The position numbers and the translations under genes are program-made. The notes below the pieces were generated by a model. That model saw nothing but the letters and a program-made list of their open reading frames with translations, did not search any database and was not told where the DNA came from. Positions 31,439 through 36,133 of a stretch of 64,000 bases of DNA are shown one piece after another (position 1 is the stretch's first letter; each line of letters opens with the position of its first letter). This DNA is from an uncultured Roseibium sp. (GTDB taxonomy: Bacteria; Pseudomonadota; Alphaproteobacteria; Rhizobiales; Stappiaceae): positions 248,001 to 312,000 of the forward strand of contig NZ_CANMFD010000002.1 of the NCBI RefSeq assembly GCF_947496995.1. The letters are read 5' to 3'.

Positions 31439-31512
31439 TGGGGAATAGGTTAACGGTAGACCCACGGACTCTGACTCCGTTAGTCCTGGTTCGAATCCAG
31501 GTTCCCCAGCCA
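31439..31512 (+). tRNA. tRNA-Gln (anticodon CTG)
   Basis: Complete cloverleaf: acceptor stem TGGGGAA pairs with TTCCCCA, followed by discriminator G and an encoded CCA. The D arm contains GGTTAACGGTAGACC. The anticodon stem ACGGA/TCCGT encloses the loop CTCTGAC with anticodon CTG. The T arm is CCTGGTTCGAATCCAGG. The last 17 bases of the gene lie inside the 24-bp repeat that recurs at 36110, so this gene is the attachment site of the island that follows. Confidence 0.95.
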
Positions 31513-31519
31513 AACTTTT
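31496..31519 (+). repeat. attL-like direct repeat within tRNA-Gln
   Basis: TCCAGGTTCCCCAGCC followed by AAACTTTT. It covers the 3' half of the T arm, the acceptor strand and CCA of tRNA-Gln, and matches 36110-36133 exactly. The tRNA stays intact at this end, as is usual for integration at tRNA 3' ends. Confidence 0.85.
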
Positions 31520-31730
31520 TCTCAAGTCATTGATATCATTGAGATAATCGAATCAATAGATCCACATTCTCAGTCGATTCGACCAACTGATGCCAAAACT
31601 GGTCCCTGGAACTGGTGCCCAAGAGCGCCGTCCGGCAAAAGGAATATGGGCAATGGTTCGTCAACATACTAGAACTATCGGCCGATTGATGATGGCGACT
31701 ACATAAATGTAACAAAAGACGAAAAAACTT

Positions 31731-31961
31731 TCATACGACCTGCTGGGTAGGCGGTGTTTGAAATTCGGGATGTAGGTCACTGCGAATTCTTTGGAAAATA
31801 CGTGAAATAAAAGCCCAAAGTGCCTCGCAATACTTATCGGAAGATCTCGGTATCCGCCGCACCTCACCGAGGTTTCGTAGCCGATCCCATCGGTGGCCAT
31901 CTGAGTTTGAGTGTTCGCCAATCAGCCACTTGGCCCAATCCTGTCGCGAATGGTCTTTCAA
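31731..31961 (-). CDS. Possible small protein, TTG start
   Basis: A 76-codon open frame starting at TTG 31961 with a good ribosome site, AAGGAG, 7 bases upstream. The product starts KDHSRQDWAKWLIGEHS after the initiator, is rich in Trp, Arg and Asp/Glu, and contains WAFISRIFQRIRSDLHPEF. It looks more protein-like than the other small frames of the island but matches nothing I know. It diverges from the gasdermin gene with 49 bases between the starts, so a regulator or small inhibitor would be conceivable. Could be spurious. Confidence 0.35.
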   Translation of the reverse strand: MKDHSRQDWAKWLIGEHSNSDGHRWDRLRNLGEVRRIPRSSDKYCEALWAFISRIFQRIRSDLHPEFQTPPTQQVV

Positions 31962-32010
31962 TCGAATTCTCCTTCTGGTAGTAAATTGCAATGTTTTCTG
32001 GAGGTAATGC

Positions 32011-32826
32011 ATGTTTGAATGCAACAGGAATTCTGCCGACCCTGTCCTAAGAGTATTTGTTCAGGAGCATAGCCTCAACCTATTGAAGTGGCCACGCACG
32101 GGGATTCAAATCGGAGATTTGGTGATCTCAAGAAATGACCGGACATTTTCTCCCGTGAATATTGAGGAAATTTTCGCATCAGACCGTCCGTTCGACGTGG
32201 AAAAGAAGCAGGTTGACCTCGCTCCCTTTGACACCTCGTTTTCATCTGCCGTGAAAATTGGCACAGTTGTCTCATTTATTGAGGGGCTTGCTTCTAGATT
32301 GGGCATGAAGGCATCGGGGAAACTTAAGTCGGCTTACGCGACTGCTAGTTCCGCCAAGGTGAAAGTGAAGGGTGGTAGAAAAACGTCGGGCAAACTGAAA
32401 GCCGTTTCGGAATGGCTTAAATCTAGTACCGTGGATCCACAACAATCGTTGATGAGAGAGGGAGACAAGCTCTACCTCGTCACAGCACTTGTAAAGTCCA
32501 ACAAACTAGAGGTTGTTGCGACGAACGCCGATAACAACAACATTGAGGTCGATGTATCTTCGACCGAGCTGGCCGACGCCTCAGCAACACTTTCAACCAA
32601 GAAATCCGTGGGCACTTCCATCATTTACAAGTCCAAGGAATTACTCACTATTGGAGTGGAGCTTCACGAGCTTGTCGCTGATGGAGACTATTGGCGTCTC
32701 AACCTGCCGAGCGGATGGGTCGATGTCCGAGGTGATGATGAAATCGGCAAGAAAGGTCCGCGCACTATCTTCCTCGAAGAGGCCGAGTCCACAGGGAATG
32801 CGTTCATTTCCTTCGTGGACGACTAG
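32011..32826 (+). CDS. Bacterial gasdermin-like pore-forming protein (bGSDM)
   Basis: 271 residues; GGAGG lies 6 bases before the ATG. The N-terminus reads MFECNRNSADPVLRVFVQEH then LNLLKWPRTGIQIGDLVISR. This matches my recollection of bacterial gasdermins: a cysteine within the first few residues (Cys4 here, palmitoylated in characterised members), a DPxLxFL-type segment and an xxxPRxxIxPxxLL segment. The middle has IGTVVSFIEGLASRLGMKAS, LKSAYATASSAKVKV and KLYLVTALVKSNKLEVVA, again as in bGSDMs. Length is typical. Known bGSDMs are held inactive by a short C-terminal peptide and released by an adjacent protease. The tail after WVDVRGDDEIGKKGPR would be the peptide here. The gene is convergent with the protease operon. 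Confidence 0.8.
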   Translation: MFECNRNSADPVLRVFVQEHSLNLLKWPRTGIQIGDLVISRNDRTFSPVNIEEIFASDRPFDVEKKQVDLAPFDTSFSSAVKIGTVVSFIEGLASRLGMKASGKLKSAYATASSAKVKVKGGRKTSGKLKAVSEWLKSSTVDPQQSLMREGDKLYLVTALVKSNKLEVVATNADNNNIEVDVSSTELADASATLSTKKSVGTSIIYKSKELLTIGVELHELVADGDYWRLNLPSGWVDVRGDDEIGKKGPRTIFLEEAESTGNAFISFVDD

Positions 32827-34259
32827 ACCACGAGTTCTTGTCGACTGATCCATCTGTTGTCGACGAAGAAATCAAAAAATAGCTTGTTTACTCCGAATTC
32901 AGGGACATTGCATTTGAGCAAGGCCTTGGCATGATCTGTGCCCTTTTCCTCAGACCAGTCGATCTTAGTATCCTGCGCCCCGGTAACAACTACGTTGAAC
33001 TTGGGTTCCCGGATTAGCCAAGCCGGGTTATCGACGCGTGCAGGTTTGCCATCCAATTCGAACGGCAACTCCGGGCTCAGGCGTAACTCGATGACAACAT
33101 CCTCGCCTTTGCGCTGAACCGTGTCCGCATAAGTGAAGCAAAGGACACCTTCTTCTCGTAGAACCTGCTCAACATCGATCCTGACTTTGTAAAGATATGC
33201 ATCCTCTAAGCTGACGGCATCTTCGCTGAAATTGGTATAGTGATGGGGGTAAACTACCCTGGCTAGCGTGACTGCAGCCTCCTTTGCCTCTGCAAAATTG
33301 TCTGATAGCAGAACCGGCAGAAGACGCGCCTTTAGATCGGACTTGTTGAATTTACTCGGACTGGCGACCAACGTTTTCATGGCTTCCCTCCGTGCTGAAA
33401 TTTCCTCACTAGCGAGGTCCAATAGAACCTTGGCAGGAGATTTCCTGCCAACTTCAGCGGATTTGCGTTTATCTCGGCTGTGCTCACGTTTGACTGTGGA
33501 ACGACTCTCCCGAGGTTTTTGCTCTGTGCCGCTCCCCTTGCTTGGTACTTTTGGTACACGTACAGAATCAGGAAGCTCGGCTGGGCGCGAACTCCAGGCA
33601 CTAGTACCCCAAAACCTCTCATCCAAATGTTCCACTGCCTCTCGCGATAGCAACAAGCGTTCATGGTTCAATATATCGTAGACATTGAGACCGCCGACAG
33701 GAAGCAAATCGACGTTATGAATGTTTCGAGTGGCTAACGCGAAATTAAGATCGACATGATTTCCAAATACGATCAAGCAGCGCTTCCCTTCGACACCCAA
33801 TCGTCGGAGCGCTTCCTTGCCTACCTTCGTCTTATGCTCTGAGATAGCGAGATTCTGCACGATTATGAGTTCGCCTTCTAGCGCCTTAGACGAGAGGGCA
33901 TGGCGCAGGCCGGCCGCGCGAATTTTCTTGGGTAGGCCGCTCTCAGCTTGCACTACAACACCACCGAACGCTCTGCCGCCACCTCGGAACTGTGGTGCTT
34001 TTGCTGAAGAGTGACGTGCCTTCCCGGTACCCTTCTGCTTATGCATCTTCTTGCCAGTACCGGCGACGTCCGATCTGCCAAGTATTTCTTTAGACGCGTT
34101 AAAACGTTTGGCCATCTGCCATCGAACAACTCGGTGGATGATGTCCGTCCTTGGTGTTTCTCCAAACACGTGTTCGTCGAGTTGAACGCGACCCGCCGCC
34201 TCTCCAGCTGCGACATCGAAAACAGGTAAGTTGCAGGCAGTGTTGAAATGCACATTCAT
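32823..34259 (-). CDS. Ribosomal protein L4 homologue fused to a novel C-terminal domain
   Basis: 478 residues. Residues ~10-217 are a full L4 (uL4) homologue of alphaproteobacterial type: LPVFDVAAGEAAGRVQLDEH, TDIIHRVVRWQMAKR, the exit-tunnel loop GTGKKMHKQKGTGKARHSS plus APQFRGGGRAFGG, LPKKIRAAGLRHALSSKA, and LNVYDILNHERLLLSREAVE. Residues 218-275 are a charged linker. Residues 276-340 are helical and HEAT-like (VLLDLASEEISARREAMKTL), and 345-478 are beta-rich with VRIDVEQVLREEGV, ELRLSPELPFELDGKPARVD and a final FFVDNRWISRQELVV. It is not the housekeeping rplD: no other ribosomal genes are near and the tail is foreign. Its ATG overlaps the CHAT stop (ATGA), so the two are translationally coupled. 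I know of no described protein of this architecture. Confidence 0.85.
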   Translation of the reverse strand: MNVHFNTACNLPVFDVAAGEAAGRVQLDEHVFGETPRTDIIHRVVRWQMAKRFNASKEILGRSDVAGTGKKMHKQKGTGKARHSSAKAPQFRGGGRAFGGVVVQAESGLPKKIRAAGLRHALSSKALEGELIIVQNLAISEHKTKVGKEALRRLGVEGKRCLIVFGNHVDLNFALATRNIHNVDLLPVGGLNVYDILNHERLLLSREAVEHLDERFWGTSAWSSRPAELPDSVRVPKVPSKGSGTEQKPRESRSTVKREHSRDKRKSAEVGRKSPAKVLLDLASEEISARREAMKTLVASPSKFNKSDLKARLLPVLLSDNFAEAKEAAVTLARVVYPHHYTNFSEDAVSLEDAYLYKVRIDVEQVLREEGVLCFTYADTVQRKGEDVVIELRLSPELPFELDGKPARVDNPAWLIREPKFNVVVTGAQDTKIDWSEEKGTDHAKALLKCNVPEFGVNKLFFDFFVDNRWISRQELVV

Positions 34260-35458
34260 GCTGCGGGTTGCTCCATTTCAGCCCGAAACCCACATTTGGA
34301 TGAGAACTCTTGCCTTTCTCCAGCGGGCACACTGGTTACCGGAAGGAGTCGGTCTCGAAAGGCGTACATCGTATAAAAGAGAGCCGATGGATTGCGATGG
34401 TGGTTGAGCACCCATTTCCGCGCCTCCATCAACGCGGCCGCGACGGATTTTCCGGTTGACGCACAAGCGTAAAACGCTCCCGCGAACATCGCAGCAAAAC
34501 CGTCGCCTATTTTTGTCTCGCTGGTCACAACACAGCTTGCGCCGTTTTGTCGGAATAGTGAAGCGTAGCTCTCAAGCGACACTGACTGGACGGAGCCCCC
34601 ATAGCAAACATTGAAGAAGACAAAAGGGCCGTTCGTCAGCGGCATTGACGCAAAGTCGTTGTAGTGAATAAGTACCTTTTCTGTGACACGAACCTTCGAG
34701 TGTTGGATGACAGGAGTGTCAGCATGGACTCTGACTTCAAGATGGCAATCAAAGTGAACGATCTGCTTAGGTTGATCCTCGCTCGCCAAAAAGTTTGCCA
34801 TAGGCAAAATACAATTACTCTGCTCTAGCTTTCCAAGGTGCAATTCTTTGATCGCAGTGCCCTTTCGCGCCACATTCAGTATCTGAGAATCGTTGTTTAC
34901 CCCGACACTGTCGAGCTGATCGTCCTCGACGATCCCCATTCCGATCTGACCATTACTCAGCACGGAGTCGCCGGGAGCAAATGGCTGCTGGCCCTTGTTG
35001 AACGCATTTCGGATTAGACGCGATTTGTACCCAAGAAACTCTTCAACGTGCGCGATGCCGCTAAGCTCTTCTGCCAAATATAGCGCTTCCCAAGGTACTG
35101 AGACTGCCGTACTCATGACCTGGATTATGGTATCTCCATCCTTAATCTCATTTCGAAACCAATCCCGGTGAGCAGGTTCCGGCATTAGCGCCTTGAAAAG
35201 GCTTCGTCCAATCTGTGCCACTTCAAGCAAAGCCGCTTCTCGATCTGGGAGCGGCTCATCGACGAAGTCGTAGCCGCGTCTGCAAATGTCCGCTAGAGAT
35301 CCTCGCAACAGACTACTTAGTGATTTGACCTGATCGGACTTTGCACTGATTTCGAGTGGTTCGGAGTGTGAAGACGTGATTAGATAGTTCGTGCTTTCGC
35401 CCAGTTGAATGATCTGATGTGTCGCGTCGGCGATTGGAAATACTGCTAATGCATTCAT
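34256..35458 (-). CDS. CHAT-domain caspase-like protease
   Basis: 400 residues from ATG 35458, which has GGGGG about 10 bases upstream; a TTG at 35500 gives 14 more residues but a weak ribosome site. The C-terminal ~260 residues form a CHAT domain. It has SVPWEALYLAEE (the PWE motif), catalytic His in QIVHFDCHLEV (His239), the catalytic Cys in FVFFNVCYGGSVQ (Cys285), and the trailing GASCVVTSETKIGDGFAAMF and KSVAAALMEARKWV. The N-terminal ~100 residues have no recognised domain. CHAT proteases are clan CD cysteine proteases related to caspases and separase, and in bacteria some cleave and activate gasdermins. It is first in a two-gene operon with the L4 fusion. Confidence 0.88.
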   Translation of the reverse strand: MNALAVFPIADATHQIIQLGESTNYLITSSHSEPLEISAKSDQVKSLSSLLRGSLADICRRGYDFVDEPLPDREAALLEVAQIGRSLFKALMPEPAHRDWFRNEIKDGDTIIQVMSTAVSVPWEALYLAEELSGIAHVEEFLGYKSRLIRNAFNKGQQPFAPGDSVLSNGQIGMGIVEDDQLDSVGVNNDSQILNVARKGTAIKELHLGKLEQSNCILPMANFLASEDQPKQIVHFDCHLEVRVHADTPVIQHSKVRVTEKVLIHYNDFASMPLTNGPFVFFNVCYGGSVQSVSLESYASLFRQNGASCVVTSETKIGDGFAAMFAGAFYACASTGKSVAAALMEARKWVLNHHRNPSALFYTMYAFRDRLLPVTSVPAGERQEFSSKCGFRAEMEQPAA

Positions 35459-36109
35459 TCGAACGTTGCCCCCAACATCGCTGTCATAAATTTCTGACAA
35501 TTTCTTGCTGGTTGCATAATGTCAACCTTCAACTGGGGTGCCTAATGGTAATTTTTGAATACTCAACTGGACGTAGTTAGCTAAAGACGATTCGTCCCAG
35601 GCGACACTAGGAAGTTTCGGCTGTGTCTGATTCTTCCACGGAAAACTGCTGAAAACCGATCAGGCGCGTAGTTGGGTCACCAATGCCTGCATCTTCTACG
35701 CTGCGCCGGAAAAGGTGCGTGTTTTTTCCGGAGCAAGGCACTCACCTCATCGGCATAGAATGCGCCTCGGCGCTCTCCCTCCAACTAAAAACGATAACCT
35801 GCTCGAGTGTGATTATTTCTTTCATCAACGTGCAAATCGGACAATTTTCGCTCAGATTACCACGAGGTGGGGAGATTTCGGCCGATGTTTGCGACAGAAT
35901 TTGAAATAGGTCAACAGAAGACCCAATAAACGCTTTGGTTGAGTAATGTCGACAACGCCGATCGAAATGATGCTCCAGTGGGGTGTTGTCTCCTATTAGC
36001 CCTTGCTATCGACGAAATGTTGACAACCCCACAGTCTTCCCCCACTCTGGGAAGGCGACCTAGCCTAACTTATTGAAATTTTTACACCATCTTATTTTCT
36101 CTTTGAGAT
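35459..36109. other. Right-hand non-coding part of the island
   Basis: No convincing gene in about 650 bases. Near the CHAT gene, reading on the minus strand, there is TTGACA at 35520-35525 and an 8-bp direct repeat CCAGTTGA (complements at 35529-35536 and 35563-35570), 34 bases apart; these are possible promoter and regulator-binding elements. Small open frames at 35683-35909 on the plus strand lack ribosome sites and family features. No integrase remnant is recognisable. Confidence 0.5.
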
Positions 36110-36133
36110 TCCAGGTTCCCCAGCCAAACTTTT
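36110..36133 (+). repeat. attR-like direct repeat
   Basis: Exact second copy of the tRNA-Gln 3' terminal sequence with the following AAACTTTT. Only the tRNA end is duplicated; no rest of a tRNA precedes it. CATTGATA follows at the same distance (32 bases from the repeat start) as at the left end. Confidence 0.85.

What the first reader, a model, noticed from the sequence alone, without database searches (positions are those of the whole stretch)
31496..36133. Tiny tRNA-Gln island encoding gasdermin + CHAT protease + ribosomal protein L4 fusion: candidate new cell-death/defence system
Seen: an exact 24-bp direct repeat bounds 4.6 kb, with three main genes and visibly different base composition. 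One gene matches bacterial gasdermins and one is a CHAT protease with intact Cys/His motifs. The third, translationally coupled to the protease, is an L4 homologue with an unrelated C-terminal half. Known: bacterial gasdermins are pore formers cleaved by neighbouring proteases, including CHAT caspase-like ones, to kill phage-infected cells. Inference: the L4 fusion is the sensing or adaptor component, so the trigger may be free L4, ribosome-assembly failure or a phage factor that targets L4. I know of no described gasdermin system with a ribosomal-protein module.
Basis: partly seen in the sequence, partly recalled or inferred. Interest (0 to 1): 0.96.

Follow-up and report, generated by a model that had tools for sequence, protein, structure and literature searches.

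The report
Ribosomal-protein alarm for gasdermin suicide
A small genomic island carries a bacterial gasdermin, a caspase-like CHAT protease and a second copy of ribosomal protein L4 joined to a conserved extra domain, and relatives carry five other ribosomal proteins on the same domain, so this is likely a suicide alarm that uses a copy of the cell's own ribosomal protein to sense attack, which would then let the protease open gasdermin pores.

Summary
The 24-bp repeat is exact, a same-genus genome shows the empty tRNA-Gln site, and the genes are a bGSDM (PADLOC 2.1e-30), a CHAT protease with its His/Cys and a full-length uL4 (1.4e-56) with a 209-aa C-terminal domain ("C-ext") that no Pfam, NCBIfam or PADLOC model matched. 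The genome has a separate L4.

The arrangement recurs. Just downstream of CHAT, C-ext is fused to bL21, uL13, uS3 or uL3 in Bradyrhizobium; database proteins of unrecovered context fuse it to uL29 or uL4. Four locus types (window, L21, L13, S3) pair an intact CHAT with a tail-to-tail gasdermin. Four L3 loci show no gasdermin in the stretch held, a CHAT without His/Cys, and a STAND/endonuclease set. The L13-locus gasdermin is identical to solved structure 7n50.

L3 fusions and the window's L4 keep nearly all universally conserved residues, and most modules resemble the host lineage's own protein. I infer a ribosome-status sensor that would release CHAT to cut gasdermin. A decoy for phage proteins is a close rival; no function was tested.

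The parts
31439..31512 (+). tRNA-Gln (CTG), integration target
   Evidence: ARAGORN; same tRNA borders the empty site in L088
31496..31519 (+). direct repeat, copy 1 (in the tRNA 3' end)
   Evidence: exact 24-bp match
36110..36133 (+). direct repeat, copy 2 (right end of island)
   Evidence: exact 24-bp match
32011..32826 (+). bacterial gasdermin (271 aa; Cys4 near the N-terminus)
32823..34259 (-). uL4::C-ext fusion protein (478 aa)
33612..34259 (-). complete uL4 module (residues 1-216)
   Evidence: TIGR03953 residues 25-213; 54% identical to the genome's other L4 over residues 18-216
33453..33611 (-). linker between uL4 and C-ext
   Evidence: sequence; low confidence in the model
32826..33452 (-). 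C-ext: helices (residues 275-369) then a beta-sandwich (372-478); adaptor role inferred
34256..35458 (-). CHAT protease (400 aa from the ATG; a longer TTG start at 35500 is possible)
   Evidence: PF12770; His239 and Cys285 codons
34742..34744 (-). CHAT His239 codon (predicted catalytic)
34604..34606 (-). CHAT Cys285 codon (predicted catalytic)
34256..34259 (-). ATGA start/stop overlap of uL4::C-ext and CHAT
32823..32826 (.). CTAG: tail-to-tail overlap of the two stop codons

Best explanation
The island encodes a gasdermin, a CHAT protease and a copy of ribosomal protein L4 joined to a conserved C-terminal domain, and it likely works as a suicide alarm in which the L4 part is predicted to dock on ribosomal RNA and report damage to the ribosome. 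SHOWN by sequence: the three genes and their overlaps; the same C-terminal domain on six different ribosomal proteins, next to a CHAT gene for L4, L21, L13, L3 and S3 (context of L29 not recovered); near-complete retention of universally conserved residues in the L3 fusions and the window's L4; an intact CHAT His/Cys pair in the locus types with a gasdermin. INFERRED: in a healthy cell the ribosomal-protein module sits on rRNA, a ribosome or an assembly intermediate, and this keeps the C-terminal domain, acting as adaptor, from switching CHAT on. When phage takeover stops rRNA supply, cuts or occupies ribosomes or displaces the module, the adaptor would activate CHAT, CHAT would clip the short inhibitory tail of the gasdermin, and the freed gasdermin would form membrane pores and abort the infection. 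Any ribosomal protein that tolerates a C-terminal extension could serve, which would explain the swapping among L3, L4, L13, L21, L29 and S3.
For: Recurrence: an L4-fusion homologue and a CHAT homologue with the same reported contig length, 207293; L21 type L003 and L004; L29 type; L13 type; L3 type in four genomes; S3 type. C-ext homology reaches beyond the rows used: the L4/L21/L29 profile finds L13 at 3.2e-9 and L3 at 9.4e-6 and 2.3e-5, and the enlarged profile finds S3 at 1.3e-11, each just downstream of a CHAT-like gene. Modules like the host lineage's own protein: L13 83% to its own host and 89% to three other Bradyrhizobium, L21 81-83%, S3 73-74%, L3 69-77%, against 60-66% to the window genome's copies of L13, L3 and S3; the L3 fusions form one clade (100/100) inside the Bradyrhizobium L3 clade (100/99). 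A separate copy of the fused protein exists in each genome checked: L4, L21 in 2 of 2, L3 in 4 of 4, L13, S3. Conservation: L3 fusions keep 53-55 of 56 columns conserved in 33 natives and 9 of 9 conserved K/R; window L4 keeps 24 of 28 and 8 of 8. Purifying selection: dN/dS 0.04-0.12 on the L3 module. Effector logic: His/Cys present in the 4 gasdermin-bearing locus types and missing in the 4 L3 loci, which show no gasdermin in the stretch held.
Against: No functional data. Docking on rRNA is not shown; conserved residues also fit a decoy that must look like the real protein. Window L4 is only 54% identical to the genome's other L4, and P0001's L4 keeps only 21 of 28 conserved columns (0.75), below the lowest native left out (0.83). 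Retention was not measured for L13, L21, L29 or S3. Gene X, found upstream of CHAT in 8 of 8 Bradyrhizobium loci (split in L004), is missing from the window, so the island could be a reduced or inactive form. The gasdermin is convergent, not in the CHAT operon. The S3-locus gasdermin is divergent (NCBIfam 27.9 bits against a cut-off of 100; 7n50 at 0.0044) and has no Leu or Arg in the tail stretch checked. No gasdermin fold model was obtained and no complex could be modelled. The same sensor set occurs without gasdermin (L3 loci), so the link to gasdermin is not fixed. The system is rare.
Confidence: 0.46

Rival explanations
1. Integrated decoy: the ribosomal-protein module is bait for phage proteins that bind, modify or cut that ribosomal protein. 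Binding or damage to the bait triggers CHAT directly, without docking on ribosomes, and the swapping of six baits follows an arms race over different targets.
For: Modules resemble the host lineage's own protein, and the L3 modules are under purifying selection. Swapping between subunits fits different phage targets. Phages do target ribosomes early: phiKZ014 binds the 50S subunit at 5S rRNA (PMC10914614, passages seen).
Against: I know of no phage factor for most of the six proteins. A bait would not obviously need the complete protein with its most conserved residues, as the L3 fusions and the window's L4 have.
Confidence: 0.33
2. Housekeeping-loss switch: the fused ribosomal protein competes with or is displaced by the normal copy during assembly, so the system fires when synthesis of new ribosomal proteins or rRNA collapses, as after host shut-off, rather than on damage to existing ribosomes.
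For: A separate copy of the fused protein was present in each genome checked, and several of the modules are early assembly proteins (recalled, no call).
Against: S3 is a late-assembling small-subunit protein (recalled), and nothing here measures expression or competition.
Confidence: 0.1
3. The L4 part is structural ballast or a localisation tag and the real sensor is CHAT itself or a host factor; L4 has no sensory role.
For: The window lacks gene X, and some bGSDM-protease pairs kill when co-expressed in E. coli (PMC9612521, passages).
Against: Six different ribosomal proteins on the same domain, in the same place behind CHAT where the context is known, are hard to explain as ballast.
Confidence: 0.08
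4. Ordinary genomic debris: a stray L4 duplication that happens to lie next to a gasdermin locus.
For: The system is rare: 1 of 385 class genomes for C-ext and 1 of 397 order genomes for gasdermin, and one decayed relative exists.
Against: Recurrent architecture in several lineages with open frames, and low dN/dS in the L3 relatives.
Confidence: 0.03

Closest known systems
Bacterial gasdermin-protease systems (Runella, Bradyrhizobium tropiciagri, Vitiosangium, Lysobacter)
   Same: A bGSDM next to a caspase-like/CHAT protease; Cys at position 3 or 4; short C-terminal tail. The L13-locus gasdermin is identical over 258 aligned residues to PDB 7n50, which I recall as the B. tropiciagri structure.
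   Different: The reviews opened at passages do not speak of a ribosomal-protein partner ('ribosom' 0 hits in PMC9079055 and PMC10999458, 2 unrelated hits in PMC10989679). Here a ribosomal-protein::C-ext gene is translationally coupled to CHAT and the gasdermin is convergent.
CARD-NLR gasdermin systems (Lysobacter; Wein et al. 2025, original paper not held)
   Same: Proteolytically triggered death; effectors can be gasdermins, phospholipases or endonucleases (PMC13236601 passages). The L3-type locus L020 carries a trypsin-like protease, a STAND NTPase and an NS endonuclease, which resembles this.
   Different: The window has no NLR and no trypsin; the proposed sensor is a ribosomal protein with C-ext.
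Canu caspase-nuclease systems (PMC12799240)
   Same: Caspase-family protease coupled to a killing effector; Ig-like folds occur (passages).
   Different: Effector and components differ; 'ribosom' 0 hits and 'chat' 0 hits in that paper.
Craspase (type III-E gRAMP with TPR-CHAT)
   Same: CHAT protease switched on by a sensor (PMC9729208, listing and start of abstract only).
   Different: No CRISPR component among the island's three main genes; the proposed sensor is not RNA-guided.
Integrated decoys of plant NLR receptors (recalled)
   Same: A copy of a host protein fused to an immune receptor and swapped between relatives.
   Different: Bacterial; ribosomal proteins; CHAT and gasdermin output.

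Membership tests
Bacterial gasdermin (bGSDM) | Matches the bGSDM profile | tested here: met
   PADLOC 2.1e-30; NCBIfam 99.8 bits against 100, 100.6
Bacterial gasdermin (bGSDM) | Cysteine at position 3/4 for palmitoylation | tested here: met
   Cys4 in window and L003, Cys3 in L019 and L033; role from PMC9612521, PMC9079055 and PMC10999458 passages; palmitoylation itself untested
Bacterial gasdermin (bGSDM) | Leu or Arg cleavage site about 20 aa from the C-terminus | tested here: inconclusive
   Window Arg and Leu 21 and 17 from the end; L033 has none in the stretch checked
Bacterial gasdermin (bGSDM) | Gasdermin fold | tested here: inconclusive
   AlphaFold pLDDT 39 with 3 rows; sequence homology to solved bGSDMs
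Bacterial gasdermin (bGSDM) | Pore formation and killing after cleavage | not testable with these tools
   needs experiment
CHAT protease | CHAT profile | tested here: met
   PF12770 3.1e-12, 47 bits against cut-off 24
CHAT protease | Catalytic His and Cys | tested here: met
   His239 and Cys285; missing in the L3-type relatives
Ribosomal protein uL4 | Full-length L4 profile above cut-off | tested here: met
   TIGR03953 190.8 bits against 130.1
Ribosomal protein uL4 | Serves as the cell's L4 | tested here: inconclusive
   A separate 207-aa L4 frame is present; use in ribosomes untested
CARD-NLR gasdermin system | NLR-like NTPase and trypsin-like protease in the locus | tested here: not met
   By ORF list the island's main ORFs are only gasdermin, L4 fusion and CHAT; L020 of the L3 type has both
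CARD-NLR gasdermin system | CARD-like domain | not tested
   no structural comparison to CARD was run
tRNA-targeted genomic island | Terminal repeat of the tRNA end and an empty site elsewhere | tested here: met
tRNA-targeted genomic island | Own integrase | tested here: inconclusive
   No further ORF of integrase size between the repeats; no integrase profile was run; mobilisation in trans possible

The most novel reading that the evidence does not exclude
Bacteria turn copies of their own ribosomal proteins into interchangeable immune receptors: a common adaptor carries L3, L4, L13, L21, L29 or S3, rides on ribosomes, and when a phage disturbs the ribosome it fires a CHAT-gasdermin pore or a nuclease. 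This ribosome-reading receptor class would include the locus of a gasdermin whose crystal structure (7n50) is solved.
Probability: 0.4. Interest if true: 0.97.

Novelty: new variant of a known kind. Interest (0 to 1): 0.93.

Why it matters
What activates bacterial gasdermins was an open question in the 2022 review PMC9612521 (passages). Here the candidate sensor is recognisable: a whole ribosomal protein on a conserved domain, swapped six ways between relatives. That makes the question directly testable by swapping modules. It would show bacteria using ribosome-borne or decoy self proteins as immune receptors, as plants do with integrated decoys (recalled), and would tie innate immunity to ribosome surveillance. 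It also puts a gasdermin with a solved structure (7n50) in a locus whose ribosomal-protein partner I did not find discussed in the passages I could read; the original papers were not held.
Full report
OBSERVATION. The island 31496-36133 is real. The two 24-bp repeats are exact and the first covers the end of tRNA-Gln. GC is 0.497 inside against 0.625 and 0.587 in the flanks. A genome of the same genus, G286, has the tRNA and both flanks but no match to the island; the right flank was found in 23 of 45 genus genomes, own genome included, and of the 11 foreign loci held only that one has the tRNA beside it. The genes are gasdermin, CHAT and uL4 with a C-terminal extension. CHAT and the L4 fusion overlap by ATGA; the L4 fusion and the gasdermin end tail to tail on CTAG. 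The genome holds a separate 207-aa L4 frame.

THE FAMILY. A protein search with residues 225-478 of the fusion found 1 relative among 2645 candidates, P0001, an L4 fusion. A CHAT search found 4 proteins among 5280 candidates: the window's own, P0003 (79%, on a 4278-base contig), P0004 (48%, same reported contig length as P0001, 207293) and P0005 of Bradyrhizobium (30%). A genome scan with the CHAT alignment found B. cajani and B. forestalis (2 loci). There the next gene is bL21 (PF00829 2.4e-32) fused to a domain homologous to the window's extension, here called C-ext, followed by a convergent gasdermin (149 bits). A profile of C-ext found 4 proteins among the 7997 candidates that were scored: the L21 fusion, P0001 and two uL29 fusions (TIGR00012 4.8e-20 and 5.3e-18). 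The context of the L29 fusions could not be recovered.

Scanning the genus of the B. cajani genome with C-ext gave 5 of 265 and, with a larger profile, 9 of 262 (overlapping samples). The nine are two L21, one L13 (TIGR01066 7.2e-53), four L3 (TIGR03625 3.7e-69 to 3.6e-74), one S3 (TIGR01009 4.9e-85) and one L3-type remnant of 98 aa. Elsewhere it is rare: 1 of 385 genomes of the class, the window's own, and 1 of 149 of the B. cajani family sample, that being the centre genome itself. The CHAT profile met 3 of 397 order genomes, the own one and two weak partial hits; the gasdermin family met 1 of 397.

ARCHITECTURE. In the 8 Bradyrhizobium loci the order is X - CHAT - ribosomal-protein::C-ext. 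X matched no Pfam or PADLOC family in the three members scanned and no PDB sequence. In B. forestalis X appears as two overlapping frames; in the S3 locus it is distant (1.3e-10). X is absent from the window. The L21, L13 and S3 loci and the window have a gasdermin tail to tail with the fusion, overlapping by 23, 41, 23 and 4 nt. The four L3 loci show none in the stretch held. In them a STAND-like protein and an endonuclease-like protein precede X; only L020 was scanned by Pfam (AAA_16 3.7e-5 and Endonuclease_NS 7.1e-48, and upstream Trypsin_2 1.1e-6), the others are alike by eye, the L031 homologue of the endonuclease gave no NCBIfam match, and in L031 and L032 the held stretch starts within or after the protease gene. 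In the alignment of eight CHATs the His and Cys are present in 5 of 5 rows from gasdermin or unknown-context loci (P0002, P0004, P0005, L019, L033) and missing in 3 of 3 L3-type rows (L020, L031, L032); L021 reads the same by eye and is 98% identical to L020. Whether P0004 has a gasdermin is unknown. The pattern suggests that the CHAT activity serves the gasdermin.

A SOLVED GASDERMIN IN THIS SYSTEM. The L13-locus gasdermin matches PDB 7n50 without a difference over 258 aligned residues. I recall 7n50 as the Bradyrhizobium tropiciagri bGSDM; reviews confirm that a B. tropiciagri bGSDM structure exists (passages). The profile hit of 6.7e-96 is therefore by construction and is not counted as evidence for the window; the window protein alone matches solved bGSDMs at 7e-6 to 2e-5.

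ORIGIN OF THE MODULES. Identities to native ribosomal proteins: L13 fusion 83% to its own host and 89% to three other Bradyrhizobium, 64% to the window genome; L21 81-83% to two Bradyrhizobium (no window-genome copy compared); L3 69-77% against 60-64%; S3 73-74% against 66%; L29 65-71% against 51-57%; window L4 54% to its own genome and 49-51% to Bradyrhizobium; P0001 L4 48-50% to either. The L3 fusions form one clade (100/100) inside Bradyrhizobium L3 (100/99); the two L4 fusions are sisters (100/99), but their place among natives is unresolved and that tree has long branches. So modules look captured from a related host: clear for L3, supported by identity for L13, L21 and S3, unclear for L4. 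Separate native copies: L4, L21 in 2 of 2, L3 in 8 of 8 with a second copy only in the 4 L3 loci, L13 in 5 of 5 with a second copy only in G1030, S3 of G922 in L049. L29 was not checkable.

DOCK OR DECOY. Against 33 natives, L3 fusions keep 53-55 of 56 columns conserved at 90%, and 9 of 9 conserved Lys/Arg; the window's L4 keeps 24 of 28 and 8 of 8; P0001 keeps 21 of 28 and 7 of 8. Natives left out one at a time keep at least 0.90 (L3) and 0.83 (L4). So the L3 fusions and the window's L4 (0.86) are within the native range; P0001 (0.75) is below it. dN/dS is 0.04-0.12 in the L3 module, 0.09-0.17 in C-ext, 0.07-0.13 in CHAT and 0.12-0.16 in X; five of six pairs in each set have dS near or above 1, so these are rough. 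The long loops that in L4 and L3 meet rRNA (recalled) lie in retained stretches. This leans to a module that can still bind rRNA, but a faithful decoy would look alike. I commit to docking at modest odds.

MECHANISM PROPOSED. Sensor: ribosomal-protein module on rRNA or ribosomes (inferred). Relay: C-ext, modelled as helices followed by an Ig/ear-like sandwich, to CHAT (inferred from coupling and co-occurrence). Output: gasdermin cut in its tail, then pores (established for other bGSDM-protease pairs, PMC9612521 passages; untested here).

HOST. One genome told to be of the same order, G035, has an L3 identical to a Bradyrhizobium copy and an L4 at zero distance in the tree, so Hyphomicrobiales is likely (inference).

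LITERATURE. Searches pairing gasdermin, CHAT or defence with ribosomal protein listed no paper about such a fusion (in full; one search showed 12 of 45); two papers among them were opened at the matching passages and were incidental. The founding gasdermin papers could not be read.

On rereading I corrected the L29 context, the L3 E-value range, some identities and the reach of the L3-locus annotation; the best explanation went from 0.47 to 0.46 and the ballast rival from 0.07 to 0.08 because CHAT context is known for five, not six, of the ribosomal proteins.

Noticed in passing
L019 10603-11382: Gasdermin of the L13-type locus is identical over 258 aligned residues to PDB 7n50, and a PADLOC trypsin-like protein (3e-257) follows on the same strand.
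   Followed up: partly
L020 7113-17307, L021 654-10881, L031, L032: L3-type loci: STAND-like protein, NS-endonuclease-like protein, X, CHAT without His/Cys, L3::C-ext, with a trypsin-like protease upstream where the sequence reaches; a form of the sensor set without a gasdermin in the stretch held.
   Followed up: partly
L003 8530-9978, L019 6654-8132, L020 13425-14717, L033 9436-10767: Gene X upstream of CHAT, no Pfam or PDB match; missing from the window.
   Followed up: partly
L030 1378-1674: Remnant of an L3-type C-ext (98 aa) beside a downstream gene like that in L018; a decayed locus, described only.
   Followed up: no
L004 8127-9978: X in B. forestalis is split into two overlapping frames that repeat part of the same sequence.
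   Followed up: no
L006 1501-1785 and L007 1315-1617: Weak CHAT hits in long frames (1274 and 541 aa) from two genomes of the same order.
   Followed up: no
window 31520-32010 and 35501-36109: About 0.5-0.6 kb at each island end without a convincing gene and no integrase-sized ORF; how the island moves is unexplained.
   Followed up: no
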